The position numbers and the translations under genes are program-made. From NCBI GenBank assembly GCA_016125385.1, contig WGLV01000005.1, positions 62,001-126,000 on the forward strand: a DNA stretch of 64,000 nt, read 5' to 3'. Under the pieces are notes generated by a model, which saw only the letters and a list, made by a program, of their open reading frames with translations, made no database searches and was not told where the DNA came from. Positions 7,143 to 51,007 of this stretch are shown piece by piece. This DNA is from a bacterium. Its GTDB lineage: Bacteria; Hinthialibacterota; Hinthialibacteria; Hinthialibacterales; Hinthialibacteraceae. How positions within the stretch are numbered: position 1 is the first letter of the stretch; every line of letters begins with the position of its first letter.

Positions 7143-9020
7143 TCAGTCGATATACTGACGATGCCATTCTTCCAGCATCAGCAGCGACCAGAGGTAATAA
7201 CCTCGGTCGCGTTTTTGTTCGTGTTCGTTCCAGAGGCGCTCGATGGCTTCGCGCCTGAAATAACCGCGCGACGCAAAGCGCTCGCCCAGCAGATAGTCTT
7301 TCGCCCACCCGCTCAGCTCTCCTAAAAACCACTCATGAATCGGGATTCCAAAGCCCATTTTGGGGAGGGTTAACAACTTTTCCGGGATGAGGTCACAGAT
7401 CGCTTTTTTGAAGATGTATTTTTTTTCTCCACCGCGAAGTTTGAGATCGATGGGGATGCGGGCGGTGAGTTCCATGAAGCGGTGGTCGAGCAACGGCGAG
7501 CGGCCTTCCATCGCGTGCGCCATGGTGGCGATATCCACTTTGGCCATCAGGTCTTCAGGCAGGTAGGAATGGAAATCGGCGAACAGGGCGCGTTCCAGAT
7601 CATCGCTCCCCGATCCAGTGGCGTCAAAAACCTGTTGCAGCCAGGCAAGCGGATCGACGCCCCCCACCCGAGCTCGAAACGCATCGCTGTACATTGGAGC
7701 GAAGCGTCCATAGTCGAAAAATCCGATCAGCATGAAATAAAACGGCAGCGGGTTGGATTGTAGAAGAGCCTGGCCCGCCTGAATCTTGCGGCCAAACGTG
7801 GCTGGAAGCATTCCCGCGGGAACAAGACGTGACAGCGATCCAAGACCGGTGGAACGCATGAGGCGCGTTTTATCGCGAAGCCGCTGGAAAATCGCGTAGC
7901 GCTCATAGCCCGCGAAGTTTTCATCGCCGCCGTCACCATTCAGCGCGACGGTGACGAATTTCCGGGCCATTTGAGCGAGATAGTACGTGGGTAAGGCCGA
8001 ACTGTCGCAATAGGGTTCTTCATACAAATTGACGAGCGTCTGAAAAATCTCGATCAGATTCCCGGGTTCAACCACGAACTCGTGATGCTCGGTCTGATAC
8101 ATTTCAGATACGAGACGCGCCTGAGGGAGTTCGTTGTATTTATCGACCTTGAATCCGATGGAAAAGGTCTTGAGCGGAGTCGATGACTCTTGCGCCGCCA
8201 AGGCGACGATCGCGCTGGAATCCAGCCCGCCGGAGAGGAAGACGCCCAGAGGCACGTCGCTGATCATGCGCAGGCGGACGGATTCACGCAGCGTATCGAG
8301 AATCGCGTCACGCCATTCGTCTTCCGAGCGTTCTTCTTTTTCCGCATAAGTGAGACGCCAGTACCGCTTGATGGAAAGTTCGCCGTTTTCGAGAAGCAGG
8401 TAATGCGCGGCGGGTAGTTTGTGGATTCCATCGAAGCCGGTATACGGCGGCGGGCAGTATCCGTAATTGATGTAGTGATGAATCGCCAGATCATCGACGC
8501 GGCGCGGGACGCCGGGATGGGTCAGGATCGCTTTCAATTCGGAAGCGAAAATGAAGCGCTTGCCATCGTAGAAATATTTGAAGGGCTTTTTGCCGATGCG
8601 GTCGCGCGCGGCGAACAGGCGCCGGCGACGTGCATCCCAGATGGCGAACGAGAACATACCGCGCAGATCTTCGAGGCAGTCGATTCCCTTCTCTTCATAC
8701 AGATGAAGGATGACTTCTGAATCGGTGTTGGAGACGAAACCGCGGCCTTTCGCCTGAAGACGTTCGCGGATGGACTGGAAGTTGTATATCTCCCCATTGA
8801 AGACCAGCGCCAGGCTTTTGTCATGATTGAACATGGGCTGGTTGCCGCAAGCGGAGAGGTCGATGATGGAAAGCCGACGATGGCCCAAACCGGCGGGTCC
8901 GCCGGTCCAGATTCCCTGGGCGTCGGGGCCGCGATGCGCAATACGTTTGGCCATGCGTTCCAACGCGGCGGCGTCCACCGGCTCGCCGTGGGTATGAACG
9001 ATTCCACAGATTCCACACAT
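7143..9020 (-). CDS. asnB: Glutamine-hydrolysing asparagine synthetase
   Basis: A 625-residue protein. It starts MCGICGIVHTHG: Cys2 is the N-terminal nucleophile of the class II glutaminase, followed by RHRGPDAQGIW-type and GHRRLSIIDLS signatures. The synthetase half has the PP-loop SGGLDSSAIVAL near residue 262, binding ATP to adenylate aspartate. Length fits the long AsnB form often found in polysaccharide clusters, where the enzyme may amidate a sugar or glycan precursor instead of free aspartate. It lies 49 bp downstream of a winged-helix regulator on the same strand. A classical Shine-Dalgarno is weak (GAG at about 14 nt). Confidence 0.93.
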   Translation of the reverse strand: MCGICGIVHTHGEPVDAAALERMAKRIAHRGPDAQGIWTGGPAGLGHRRLSIIDLSACGNQPMFNHDKSLALVFNGEIYNFQSIRERLQAKGRGFVSNTDSEVILHLYEEKGIDCLEDLRGMFSFAIWDARRRRLFAARDRIGKKPFKYFYDGKRFIFASELKAILTHPGVPRRVDDLAIHHYINYGYCPPPYTGFDGIHKLPAAHYLLLENGELSIKRYWRLTYAEKEERSEDEWRDAILDTLRESVRLRMISDVPLGVFLSGGLDSSAIVALAAQESSTPLKTFSIGFKVDKYNELPQARLVSEMYQTEHHEFVVEPGNLIEIFQTLVNLYEEPYCDSSALPTYYLAQMARKFVTVALNGDGGDENFAGYERYAIFQRLRDKTRLMRSTGLGSLSRLVPAGMLPATFGRKIQAGQALLQSNPLPFYFMLIGFFDYGRFAPMYSDAFRARVGGVDPLAWLQQVFDATGSGSDDLERALFADFHSYLPEDLMAKVDIATMAHAMEGRSPLLDHRFMELTARIPIDLKLRGGEKKYIFKKAICDLIPEKLLTLPKMGFGIPIHEWFLGELSGWAKDYLLGERFASRGYFRREAIERLWNEHEQKRDRGYYLWSLLMLEEWHRQYID

Positions 9021-46271: not shown

Positions 46272-46532
46272 ATGAGTCTTTCAGCCAACGAGGTTTTGAA
46301 CATGGATCTGAAGAAAGTCGTATTGGCGTTGGTTATTGCGGTTGCGGGCGTATCGGCGGGGAGCGTACTGTCGGACGTGCTGCTCAAGCCGCGCATTCAG
46401 CGGGCTTACTTGGGCCCGGACGCGGCTCGGCTGAGAATCGCTTCAGAGCCACGCGCGAACGATGAGAAAATGGAAAAAACTCACGGCATCAATCATGCAA
46501 CACTGCAGGACGCGACGGTGGCGCAGCCGTAA
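46272..46532 (+). CDS. Small single-pass membrane protein, hypothetical
   Basis: 86 residues from ATG 46272 (GGAAGAG 6 nt upstream). One hydrophobic helix (VVLALVIAVAGVSAGSVLSDVLL) with a basic tail LKPRIQRAYLGPDAARLRIASEPRAND. No family recognised. A 5'-extended frame to 46164 lacks a ribosome binding site. Confidence 0.45.
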   Translation: MSLSANEVLNMDLKKVVLALVIAVAGVSAGSVLSDVLLKPRIQRAYLGPDAARLRIASEPRANDEKMEKTHGINHATLQDATVAQP

Positions 46533-46875
46533 GTGGTTTATACATCGGCTGGTTGCATAACCCGCCGGAAGCAGCACCAGAAGAAATTGCCAGTTATTCG
46601 CGTGAGCCCGGTTTCTATACCGGTTCCCCCAAACCCATTCCCGAGATCGGGCTTCACGCGATGTTCCATACCCACCGGGGGGGGAGCCGCCCCACGGCTC
46701 CCCCCCAAGCCCATTTAGTCTACTCACAAACAAAAAATTAATAAAAAAATGGTTGACGCATTTCATGACATATTCTTAAATATCTCAGAGTCAATTCATG
46801 ACCTCTTTTTTTAGATTTTATACACATTTTATCGAGAAACAGTTCGGAAATAGCGCATCAGCAAGGGAGCGAACC
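46533..46875. other. 343-bp intergenic region with GC hairpin
   Basis: No supported gene. An open frame at 46553-46741 reads HNPPEAAPEEIASYSREPG but has no ribosome binding site or family. The region ends in an AT-rich stretch that marks the left edge of the low-GC block. Confidence 0.4.
46678..46706. repeat. 11-bp G/C-rich inverted repeat
   Basis: GGGGGGGAGCC (46678-46688) and GGCTCCCCCCC (46696-46706) with a 7-nt loop. No T-run follows on either strand, so it is not a standard terminator. Confidence 0.5.
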
Positions 46876-47688
46876 ATGAAACACGCCGTGCTAATTGTGA
46901 GCTTTATTGTTGGGATGGGTTGCTTGAAGGGAGATTGTACAGGAATCGCTAATCTTTGGTGCACTGTAACAAATTCTAGATATGAAGTTGTGTCTATATA
47001 TGCGAAACCTGGAAGCCCACATATTACGAGTGCACAAGCAGATTCCTTGATTTCTTCCTTCGAATATAATTTGCAAATCGTCGCCCATTTAACGTGGGAT
47101 TTATACGATAAGTATTTCGAAGATTCGGAACGCAACTATTTCAGTGAATCGAAGGGAATATGTGCTCTAGTAACTGTTGATCACAAAGACCTGTCATTTG
47201 ATGCCATTGATAACGTTACGTTTTCAACTGGAGCAGATGTTGCCAGTATTTTGGACTCATTAGATGGTTATGATAACCCATATAAGATTCACATCTTGAT
47301 TGTCAGTAACAATGAACCTGTGTTTAATGGAGGCCGTGTTGCGGTGTCATATCCATCTTATGGTGTTATTTTAATAAAGAAATCAACCGTACAAGGTGAT
47401 TCAGGGTTTGCTGCATCAGTTTTAATGCATGAGTTCGGCCATTTAAAATACGACCATAACTCAATTGCTCAACCTGGACCCGGCGAGTACAGTTGGCCTA
47501 CCTGGGAACATTGGCACTATGGAGAATATGGCATTTATTCTGAACCGAAAGAGTTTCTGTTCAACGCCATGTGGTGGATGTCTGGAGGCGGTTCAGATGT
47601 TGATGCTCGGTACAAGAATTCCAAATACCCATGGGATGATTTACCTTATGTGAGCAGTCGGCCCATATTCAATGATTTTGGATATTAA
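46876..47688 (+). CDS. Secreted HExxH protein, metallopeptidase-like, unassigned
   Basis: 270 residues from ATG 46876 (GGGAGC upstream). Signal peptide MKHAVLIVSFIVGMG, possibly a lipoprotein. At residues 185-194 it has HEFGHLKYDH. HEFGH fits the gluzincin/metzincin zinc motif, but the third His is at +9 from the first, not the +10 of HExxHxxGxxH. Downstream EHWHYGEYGIYSEPKEF may supply a ligand. About 38% GC by eye, against 55-58% around. Enzyme activity is inference. Confidence 0.6.
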   Translation: MKHAVLIVSFIVGMGCLKGDCTGIANLWCTVTNSRYEVVSIYAKPGSPHITSAQADSLISSFEYNLQIVAHLTWDLYDKYFEDSERNYFSESKGICALVTVDHKDLSFDAIDNVTFSTGADVASILDSLDGYDNPYKIHILIVSNNEPVFNGGRVAVSYPSYGVILIKKSTVQGDSGFAASVLMHEFGHLKYDHNSIAQPGPGEYSWPTWEHWHYGEYGIYSEPKEFLFNAMWWMSGGGSDVDARYKNSKYPWDDLPYVSSRPIFNDFGY

Positions 47689-47712
47689 CCCCACTTCTGT
47701 AGAGGTGATAAA

Positions 47713-48483
47713 ATGAAAACCTTCCTGACTGTTTTTACATATTTCTCTCTTTTTCTGTTGTTTGCTACGTCAAGCGCAAATTGTCAATCAGATTCGACTA
47801 CTTTAATTAATAAATATCTCGAATTGCGCGACCAGCGCATCAATTATTCACAAATTATTAATAGGCTGGAAAGTGAAAAACCTGGAGCAATAGACCGTTT
47901 GTATAATACTGTCGCAGAAAGCCCTTTGTATTCAGAGTACTTGATTGATGTTTTGTACTTAAACGCCCATAAGTATCAAGAGGATCCCAATCGTATTTTG
48001 GCATTTGCAAGTAACTTTGTTTTGAGAAAAGAATCTTCCGCAGATGATAAAATTCTCAATGGGAAAAGCGCATCTATGTTTTTCATCTATGACATTCTGC
48101 GTCCTGTCTATGTGGACAAAATGAAAAAAGCGGGGACTTATGAGTCCTTTCTTAAATCCACCGTCACGTTTTTTGACGATTTGCAACGAAAGATAGACGT
48201 CAATTATGAAGGAGACATAAAATTTTTAGCAAAGCAAGATCAAGAAAATAATTCCCCAAAAATCGGAAAATGGCTTATTGGGCTTAAACGTGAATTTCTC
48301 AAACTGGCAATAAACCTGTATTTTGTCACTGAAGACGAACATTTTCATAAAATAGTTGTTGATTATACTAACTGCAATGTTCCAGTATTAGAAAGAACAG
48401 CCGACTTTCTTTTGTCAGAAAGATATTATACATTATGGCTAAATGAGACGAGAAAATTGTATGATCATGGCGGTATAGAGTAG
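47713..48483 (+). CDS. Secreted helical protein of unknown function
   Basis: 256 residues with a signal peptide (FLTVFTYFSLFLLFATSSANC). The mature part is mostly helical and charged: LINKYLELRDQRINYSQIINRLESEKPG, then FLKSTVTFFDDLQRKID. No catalytic motif or family seen. It starts 24 bp after the HExxH gene with AGAGGTG upstream, so it is probably co-transcribed. Low GC: one 60-base line (47761-47820) has 19 G+C. Confidence 0.55.
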   Translation: MKTFLTVFTYFSLFLLFATSSANCQSDSTTLINKYLELRDQRINYSQIINRLESEKPGAIDRLYNTVAESPLYSEYLIDVLYLNAHKYQEDPNRILAFASNFVLRKESSADDKILNGKSASMFFIYDILRPVYVDKMKKAGTYESFLKSTVTFFDDLQRKIDVNYEGDIKFLAKQDQENNSPKIGKWLIGLKREFLKLAINLYFVTEDEHFHKIVVDYTNCNVPVLERTADFLLSERYYTLWLNETRKLYDHGGIE

Positions 48484-48595
48484 CAGCAATTTTGATTCAC
48501 TTTTTAAAATTTAACTATGGGCACTGAAGGTGCGTTTTAAGCTAAATGGACGCACCTTTTGTTTTTTTGCTAGAAAATCAGGGCGCGGTGTCATC

Positions 48596-51007
48596 ATGAA
48601 TCCACGTGGATTATCTGAGTGGTCTTTTATATCAATTGCGGTAATATTATCTGTCCTGATCTTTGGATTTGTTTTTCTTAGTCGTAATGAAGAGAGCCAA
48701 AATTTAATTCCTCCCAAAGAGCCATTGCCCACACCTACTTTTCCCATGAATTTTTTTCAGGAATCGCAATCGCCGACTCCTTTCCCAACACTCGTGACGG
48801 TTGAAGCACCGGATGAAACGGCTCATATTTATCATTTTTTCATTTCTTTTTACGATGCGGAAGCGGAGCCGTTAGAACTCAGTCTGATGTTTTACAATAC
48901 CGTTGGCGATGCTCTGTATACCGATCATGAGACCATGCAACTTGCGCTGGAACCGATTAACGTGGATATACCCGGCGAGATATCTTCGAAGATCGTTGCT
49001 TTCGAAATTTCTTCCCCGGGTTTTGTAAGTACAAAAATGAAATTCAACCCGAGCAAAAGCGAATATATTGTCCGGTTGTCCAGAAAATACTTGATTGATT
49101 GGATCCTTAACAATCGATCTCAACTTAACATTCACGACTTGTCGCTGAACGTTTCGCAAGAGGGAGCGCTGTTCGCGGTAAAAGAAAGTATTACCAGTGT
49201 GACAGGCATCGTCGCTCTGGAGCGTGAGGGCGTGTACCGCTTCGATGTGCTCGATCCTCAAGAGGTGGTAGTCTGCTCCCAGATGCAGCGGATCGATTCG
49301 AATCCCAACACACTGACTTTCACCATTGAAAATCAAGGCTTACTGGAAGGTAAATTGACGCGGGAGCGCGGCGAGGAGACGGAAGGGATTACGCTTTCCG
49401 TGTATGACGCGGCGGGCGGGTTGATTCAGGCGGCTTCGCTGGACGCGCAAGGGCGATTCCGAATTGAACACCTTCCCTACGGCGAGGCGCTTTACCAAAT
49501 GACCGGCGAAGAGGGCGACGCGCTGGGAGTACGGCTCGCCAGCGATCCCGGCATGGCGGCCAATCGCGGCAAGCTGAGTCTCTTTTTCACGGCGGAGAAG
49601 CGCCGCGTGTATCTCGACCTGGTCGAGCCCGGCGCCGTGGCGATCACGGGCTACGTGGTCAGCGAAGACGGCCTACCCATACCAGACGCCGTCGTGGCCC
49701 CTTACTGGCTGGGGCCGCGCAATCATGTGGTGGGGTTCGCCGCGAAGTCCACGCACAGCGACGCCAACGGCGAGTTTCAAATCAGCGCATATCCCGAGCA
49801 GCGTAGCAACGACATCCGATTGTTCGCCGTGCATCCCGATTTTGAGGATCAATTCCTCGACGTGAAAGACGTGTTCAGCGGAGTCGGACGGCAGACCATC
49901 GTCATGAAGCAAACCGGCAAGATCAAGTTGACGTTGCATTTCGTCGATGAGGAGGGGGCGAGCCTACCGGGACTGACGTTTTATTTTTCATCCGCGGCGG
50001 CTTCGTACTTTCATGAGCCGAAAACCAGGATGGCCGCCGATGAAACGGGGACGGCGACGATTCCAATCAAGAAGGACGTGTACGTCGTCGAGCCGCACGA
50101 GAGACGGTATTCCATTCAAGAGAAGCGGATCGACGTCCGCGACGCGACGGAGAGCGCGAGCGCACGCATCATGGTCAATACCGCACGTGAAGGATTCATC
50201 GCTGGGGTCGTGTACGCGAGCGACACAACGTATCCATTACACATGGCGAACGTCACTCTCACGGATCATCAGGGGAAATTCATCTCCGCCACCAGCACGA
50301 AAGAAAACGGTTCGTTTCAACTCGCCATCCAGCGGCGGGACGACTCCAAGGAATTCACGCTGGAGGTTGGGCATCGCCTCTACCATCCCCAATCGATCGC
50401 GCTCGTCGTCGAAGATTCGACGGACGCGGTTCACGTCGTGCTGGAAAAGAAGGACAACTACACGATTTATACGACGATTATGAACAAGCAGAAGAATGAA
50501 GACGTTCAAGTCTCGCTTACCGGCCGTAGGCCACCGCAGAATTTGAGCAATCCCGTCTATTTACAACGCGATGCTCGCAGCACATCGTTTGACAATCTCG
50601 ACGCCGAGATGTTCCCGTTGCAACTCTACGCGCAAGCCGGCAAGAAAGTCGGATTCAGGATCATCACACAGGACGATTTCAAAGGGGAAAAGCAGTTACA
50701 GGCCGATCTTGAACTGGGCGACTCGTTCTTCAACGAGCGCGATCTTCACTTTCTCGTCACGGACCGCGAGGGGAAGCCTATCAAGGCCGCGACGATCGAA
50801 CTGCGCTTTTATGAACTGATGCCGCAGGACGCTTTTGTTCAACGGAGCAAAAAGCGGGTGACGGACGCGGAGGGGCTGCTGACAATCCCCGGATTCAAGG
50901 CGGGTTTTTTCTGGATGACGGTTACGCATCCATTTCATGAGAGCGTCACCCTGCACAGTGAAGAGATTCCCATCGAAGGGGACGTTTATCACGTCATCCT
51001 GCAATAG
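48596..51007 (+). CDS. Membrane-anchored protein with several CarboxypepD_reg-like beta domains
   Basis: 803 residues from ATG 48596. N-terminal anchor helix (FISIAVILSVLIFGFVFLS), a Pro/Thr linker (PLPTPTFPMN...SPTPFPTLV), then beta domains. Carboxypeptidase-regulatory-like folds begin near residue 345 (VAITGYVVSEDGLPIPDAVVA), 531 (FIAGVVYASDTTYPLHMANVTL) and 717 (FLVTDREGKPIKAATIELRF). Likely an extracytoplasmic structural or adhesion protein. The first quarter is AT-rich like its upstream neighbours while the rest is GC-rich, so the gene may be a mosaic. The frame extends to 48530, but the added residues precede the anchor. Confidence 0.6.
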   Translation: MNPRGLSEWSFISIAVILSVLIFGFVFLSRNEESQNLIPPKEPLPTPTFPMNFFQESQSPTPFPTLVTVEAPDETAHIYHFFISFYDAEAEPLELSLMFYNTVGDALYTDHETMQLALEPINVDIPGEISSKIVAFEISSPGFVSTKMKFNPSKSEYIVRLSRKYLIDWILNNRSQLNIHDLSLNVSQEGALFAVKESITSVTGIVALEREGVYRFDVLDPQEVVVCSQMQRIDSNPNTLTFTIENQGLLEGKLTRERGEETEGITLSVYDAAGGLIQAASLDAQGRFRIEHLPYGEALYQMTGEEGDALGVRLASDPGMAANRGKLSLFFTAEKRRVYLDLVEPGAVAITGYVVSEDGLPIPDAVVAPYWLGPRNHVVGFAAKSTHSDANGEFQISAYPEQRSNDIRLFAVHPDFEDQFLDVKDVFSGVGRQTIVMKQTGKIKLTLHFVDEEGASLPGLTFYFSSAAASYFHEPKTRMAADETGTATIPIKKDVYVVEPHERRYSIQEKRIDVRDATESASARIMVNTAREGFIAGVVYASDTTYPLHMANVTLTDHQGKFISATSTKENGSFQLAIQRRDDSKEFTLEVGHRLYHPQSIALVVEDSTDAVHVVLEKKDNYTIYTTIMNKQKNEDVQVSLTGRRPPQNLSNPVYLQRDARSTSFDNLDAEMFPLQLYAQAGKKVGFRIITQDDFKGEKQLQADLELGDSFFNERDLHFLVTDREGKPIKAATIELRFYELMPQDAFVQRSKKRVTDAEGLLTIPGFKAGFFWMTVTHPFHESVTLHSEEIPIEGDVYHVILQ

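What the first reader, a model, noticed from the sequence alone, without database searches (positions are those of the whole stretch)
46760..49340. AT-rich insert with two secreted proteins and a mosaic third gene
From about 46.76 kb the composition drops sharply (19 and 22 G+C in the 60-base lines at 47761 and 47821, against 35 in the line at 49561). The block holds an HExxH secreted protein, a secreted helical protein 24 bp later, and the first quarter of an 803-residue membrane-anchored protein. The change back to high GC falls inside that last gene. This fits recent acquisition of a small extracellular module with recombination into a resident beta-domain gene.
Basis: partly seen in the sequence, partly recalled or inferred. 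Interest (0 to 1): 0.6.

Follow-up and report, generated by a model that had tools for sequence, protein, structure and literature searches.

The report
AT-rich secreted zinc-motif protein gene cassette
Three neighbouring genes (a secreted protein with a zinc-protease-type motif, a secreted helical protein and a membrane-anchored beta-domain protein) form a rapidly evolving gene set that recurs in the same order in three genera of one uncultured bacterial family, so the low-GC patch is a real, unnamed extracellular module and not a chance insertion into a resident gene.

Summary
A 2.5 kb block (46,713-49,194) is 38-39% G+C in a 56.7% G+C genome; it is the lowest 2-kb stretch in 1.29 Mb sampled. 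The third gene has a significant internal composition step near 49.13-49.19 kb. The same three genes, in the same order (A: secreted HExxH protein; B: secreted helical protein, often duplicated; C: membrane-anchored CarboxypepD_reg protein), occur at three further loci in two other genera of the family. Each locus has unrelated neighbours, and A and B are AT-rich at all four. A and B matched no curated family and were found nowhere else (386 sampled genomes; plasmid, phage and viral collections). Protein distances give the same order for all three genes, so they travel as a unit. The GC-rich body of C groups with the other cassettes' C proteins (96/97), not with the genome's own CarboxypepD_reg protein, so 'recombination into a resident beta-domain gene' is not supported. 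'Recent acquisition' is unproven: the proteins are only 19-25% identical between genera, and no mobile element, flanking repeat or empty site was found. Likely role: an envelope-anchored secreted metallopeptidase module. The group is OLB16/Hinthialibacterota-like (inferred).

The parts
46713..49194 (.). AT-rich block (38-39% G+C)
   Evidence: binary segmentation of base composition; lowest 2 kb in 1.29 Mb of this genome
46753..46781 (+). possible sigma-70-like promoter of the cassette (TTGACG-N17-TTAAAT); TTGACA/TTGACT boxes also stand upstream of A at the other three loci
   Evidence: read by eye; not in the scan list, low confidence
46876..47688 (+). gene A: secreted HExxH (HEFGH) zincin-like protein, 270 aa from the ATG after AAGGGAG (longest ORF starts at 46798)
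   Evidence: leave-one-out profile from the other loci finds it at E 1e-14
47713..48483 (+). gene B: secreted all-helical solenoid-like protein, 256 aa; one copy here, two at two of the other loci
   Evidence: leave-one-out profile E 1e-12
48526..48568 (+). terminator-like hairpin followed by a T run, between B and C; not seen at the other loci
   Evidence: fold -18 kcal/mol, z -2.9; junctions of relatives
48596..51007 (+). gene C: N-terminal signal anchor, Pro/Thr-rich linker, CarboxypepD_reg/Ig-like beta domains, 803 aa
   Evidence: leave-one-out profile E 1e-37; groups with cassette C proteins
49133..49194 (+). composition switch inside gene C (codons 179-200), private to this genome

Best explanation
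Genes A, B and C form a lineage-restricted, mobile or frequently relocated gene cassette that encodes an extracytoplasmic module. Shown: order A-B(1-2)-C at four loci in three genera; export signals on A and B; a single N-terminal anchor and beta-sandwich repeats on C; HExxH kept in all four A proteins; B predicted as an all-helical solenoid; proteins diverging much faster than a housekeeping neighbour; composition of A and B below that of the host at all loci. Inferred: A is a secreted zinc-dependent (HExxH) peptidase, C is an envelope-anchored beta-rod that holds or displays the complex, and B is the helical partner that binds A or C (chaperone, inhibitor or adaptor; its duplication and fast divergence fit a partner-binding role). 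The composition step in C is the edge of the AT-rich module or a local change within a cassette-type gene, not a fusion to an unrelated resident gene.
For: Same order at G005:C30, G004:C83 and G004:C35 with short or overlapping junctions. A and B occur only there among 14 genomes of the phylum and 386 sampled genomes, never apart. Profiles built without the window find window A, B and C (1e-14, 1e-12, 1e-37), with no second A or B in the whole own genome. Pairwise protein identities give the same order for A, B and C: G005 nearest G004:C35, then G004:C83, with the window's the most distant. Invariant in A: HExGH, two Cys, G-x-Y-x-W, YG preceded by His (Glu in one), N-x-M, G-x-D-x-D. B model pLDDT 80.6, 13 helices. 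C matches CarboxypepD_reg at 1.7e-22. GC of A/B is 35-44% at all four loci. The GC-rich body of C alone clusters with cassette C proteins, 96/97.
Against: No enzymatic family is matched and the AlphaFold model of A is poor (pLDDT 39), so peptidase activity rests on the motif. No interaction among A, B and C is shown. A terminator-like hairpin lies between B and C here, so C may not be co-transcribed with A-B in this genome. The composition step in C is absent in relatives and is not fully explained. C_G000 sits on a long branch (3.1-3.2 changes per column), and its leave-one-out score (129 bits) is only modestly above the best generic CarboxypepD_reg protein (108 bits).
Confidence: 0.55

Rival explanations
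1. Recent horizontal insertion of an AT-rich two-gene block (A, B) that recombined into a pre-existing GC-rich resident beta-domain gene, giving a mosaic C.
For: Sharp composition edges; significant GC3 step inside C that relatives lack; no detectable match of C residues 1-199 to the C profile when tested alone; terminator between B and C.
Against: The GC-rich body of C is itself cassette-type (96/97; 124.6 bits against 29.7 for the own-genome paralogue). In the full-length C, the homology starts near residue 138, before the composition step. C follows A-B at all four loci. The anchor/linker part of C is variable in all loci.
Confidence: 0.12
2. Effector-immunity or enzyme-inhibitor system: A is a secreted metalloprotease effector, B its cognate neutralising partner encoded directly downstream and duplicated, C the surface docking or delivery component.
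For: B directly after A at all four loci, duplicated at two (74% and 63% identical copies); A and B strongly divergent between loci; patchy distribution; two different cassettes in one genome.
Against: No secretion-system marker domain or known immunity fold; no PADLOC match; B has its own export signal; C is no more slowly evolving than A and B.
Confidence: 0.2
3. A is not a peptidase but a secreted structural or binding protein in which HExGH serves another metal role.
For: No peptidase family reached significance; the metzincin third-ligand motif HExxHxxGxxH is absent; other HEXXH enzymes are not proteases (PMC12636437, abstract).
Against: HExGH is invariant in four proteins only 21-40% identical, with a nearby invariant Met and a candidate third ligand.
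Confidence: 0.13

Closest known systems
Metzincin-type secreted zinc peptidases (Pfam Reprolysin_3 PF13582, Peptidase_M43 PF05572)
   Same: secreted; HE[FWY]GH after several predicted strands; an invariant Met some 40-60 residues downstream
   Different: no HExxHxxGxxH; only a sub-threshold Pfam match (E 0.17); profile alignment with metzincins of the same class covers only 17 columns around the motif
CarboxypepD_reg (PF13620) / prealbumin-like beta-domain surface proteins (NOMO, SdrD B-type)
   Same: gene C carries several such domains behind an N-terminal anchor; such proteins are common throughout this phylum
   Different: cassette C proteins form their own group of 803-816 aa, always behind A-B
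ARM/HEAT/TOG-like helical solenoids
   Same: B is predicted as a chain of antiparallel helices
   Different: no significant Foldseek match (best E 0.09; TM of the best matches below 0.45) and no Pfam family

Membership tests
Metzincins | HExxHxxGxxH/D zinc-binding motif | tested here: not met
   HExGH kept in 4/4, but the residues after it (LKYDHN, TYEPYF, TDDSRT, CFEPEC) hold no conserved third His/Asp at the right spacing
Metzincins | Met-turn after the zinc motif | tested here: inconclusive
   invariant N-x-M (NAM, NIM, NYM, NIM) downstream, but no reliable structure
Zincins (HExxH metallopeptidases in general) | HExxH with a third ligand, on a zincin fold | tested here: inconclusive
   motif met in 4/4; His (Glu in one) before the invariant YG is a candidate third ligand; AF2 model pLDDT 39
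Zincins (HExxH metallopeptidases in general) | metal-dependent proteolysis | not testable with these tools
   needs purified protein
CarboxypepD_reg proteins (PF13620) | match above the gathering score | tested here: met
   80 bits against cut-off 32.3; relatives 106-131 bits
The A-B-C cassette defined here | A, B and C homologues adjacent, in order, same strand | tested here: met
   4 loci, 3 genera; leave-one-out profiles
Integrated mobile element / genomic island | integrase or transposase, flanking repeats, tRNA target or empty site | tested here: not met
   no such gene among the neighbours scanned, only weak 14-18 nt repeats, no tRNA between 40.3 and 62.4 kb; empty site unresolved because flank genes are not contiguous in the nearest relative
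Known anti-phage defence system | PADLOC model match | tested here: not met
   no match at E 0.1

The most novel reading that the evidence does not exclude
A and B are two unnamed protein families confined to this uncultured bacterial lineage that together make a new secreted zinc-effector/partner pair, displayed by an anchored beta-rod, and exchanged between sites as a unit like a polymorphic effector-immunity cassette.
Probability: 0.18. Interest if true: 0.6.

Novelty: new variant of a known kind. Interest (0 to 1): 0.42.

Why it matters
It turns a composition oddity into a defined gene cassette with two families that match nothing in Pfam, NCBIfam or PADLOC, in a phylum (OLB16/Hinthialibacterota) known mainly from uncultured genomes. 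Its patchy, relocated, rapidly diverging pattern suggests a role in interaction with other cells or substrates, and gives three concrete proteins to test.

Tried and rejected
Fold searches with B gave only weak solenoid resemblances. Plasmids, phages and IMG/VR gave no A, and IMG/VR no B. The flanks (46,530-46,800 and others) are not repeated in about 490 kb of this genome. No empty site: in G001 the MiaB-like flank gene stands next to sigma/anti-sigma-like genes and the PadR/HAAS pair lies at a contig end. Profile-profile comparison of A with metzincins aligned only the motif. A paper search for a described cassette of this kind gave nothing relevant.

Full report
Observation. The window (G000:C13:62001-126000 of a 5.53 Mb genome in 77 contigs) has a single deep GC minimum at 46.7-49.2 kb. 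Segmentation gives edges at 46,713 and 49,194. To judge whether this is unusual, I sampled 1.29 Mb of the same genome: mean 2-kb GC 0.568, sd 0.037, and the 2 kb at 46,701 (0.377) are the lowest of 11,700 windows, the next minimum being 0.427. Among 753 ORFs of at least 200 aa, B is the most AT-rich and A the fourth. The composition step inside the third gene is also real.

Genes. A (46,876-47,688; the ATG after AAGGGAG is a better start than 46,798) has a signal-type N-terminus and HEFGH. B (47,713-48,483) is a secreted helical protein. C (48,596-51,007) has an N-terminal anchor, a Pro/Thr-rich linker and CarboxypepD_reg/Ig-like domains. A terminator-like hairpin with a T run (48,526-48,568) stands between B and C.

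Relatives. A search of the phylum's 14 held genomes found A at four loci: the window, G005:C30, G004:C83 and G004:C35. At each, A is followed on the same strand by one or two B genes and then C. G004:C83 has an additional DUF1573-domain gene between B and C. Junctions are short or overlapping. Neither A nor B was found in any of the other genomes among 386 sampled relatives; A was not found in plasmids or phages, nor A or B in viral contigs. Leave-one-out profiles, built without the window's proteins, find them at E 1e-14 (A), 1e-12 (B) and 1e-37 (C). Pairwise identities rank the loci identically for A, B and C, as expected of a unit. The proteins are mostly 19-25% identical between the window and the other genera (one B at 15%), against 59-64% for the neighbouring MiaB-like protein in the same two genomes.

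Composition across loci. A and B are AT-rich at all four loci (35-44% G+C). C is 43-47% and even along its length in the relatives, while the window's C starts at 40% and rises to 51-66%. AT-richness therefore belongs to the cassette; the step within C is private to this genome.

Is C a mosaic with a resident gene? CarboxypepD_reg proteins are common in this class, and this genome has another at C52. I scored the GC-rich body of C (residues 200-803) alone: 124.6 bits, one colinear match to the cassette-C profile, against 107.6 for the best generic protein and 29.7 for the own-genome paralogue. In a tree it groups with the cassette C proteins at 96/97 (full-length tree 94/93). In the full-length protein the homology begins near residue 138, upstream of the composition step. 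The body is therefore cassette-type. Homologous recombination with another cassette C of higher GC, or loss of AT bias in the conserved part, remains possible. Caveat: the branch of C_G000 is long.

Mobility. The three loci elsewhere have unrelated neighbours, so the cassette moves or is often lost and regained. No integrase gene, tRNA target or convincing flanking repeat was found, and no empty site could be reconstructed.

Function. HExGH is invariant in A, together with two Cys, a His/Glu before YG, N-x-M and G-x-D-x-D. The metzincin third-ligand motif is absent and no family model is matched, so A is best called zincin-like. B is modelled as a 13-helix solenoid (pLDDT 80.6) with no significant structural relative. 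Most likely (inference) A is a secreted zinc peptidase, C its envelope-anchored display or docking rod, and B the helical partner that controls or bridges A.

Organism. G004 appears to be SURF_12: contig QZKN01000176 has 32,049 bases, the same length as G004:C83. Its lineage is OLB16 (PMC10066038), named Hinthialibacterota/Urusiota, with genomes of 3.4-7.5 Mb and 49.7-65.0% G+C (PMC11382960). The window's genome is in the same family as G004. Placement is inferred through SURF_12.

Noticed in passing
46599-46712: A 68% G+C patch with a long hairpin (GGGGGGGGAGCCG/CGGCTCCCCCCC) directly before the AT-rich block; not repeated in about 490 kb of this genome that was checked.
   Followed up: partly
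L009 (G005:C30), roughly 8875-8960: Five near-identical tandem copies of a 16-bp unit (TTAAGGCGTTGTTTTA) upstream of gene A in G005.
   Followed up: no
L010 7830-8900 (G004:C83): An exported DUF1573/HYDIN-type Ig-domain gene lies between B and C in one cassette.
   Followed up: partly
L063 5803-8225 (G005:C150): Three to four tandem, very similar 186-aa genes (Uma2/DUF820-like by recall) next to the MiaB-like gene.
   Followed up: no
L009 6114-7907: The two B copies in G005 end in the same 26 residues while overall they are 74% identical, suggesting gene conversion.
   Followed up: no
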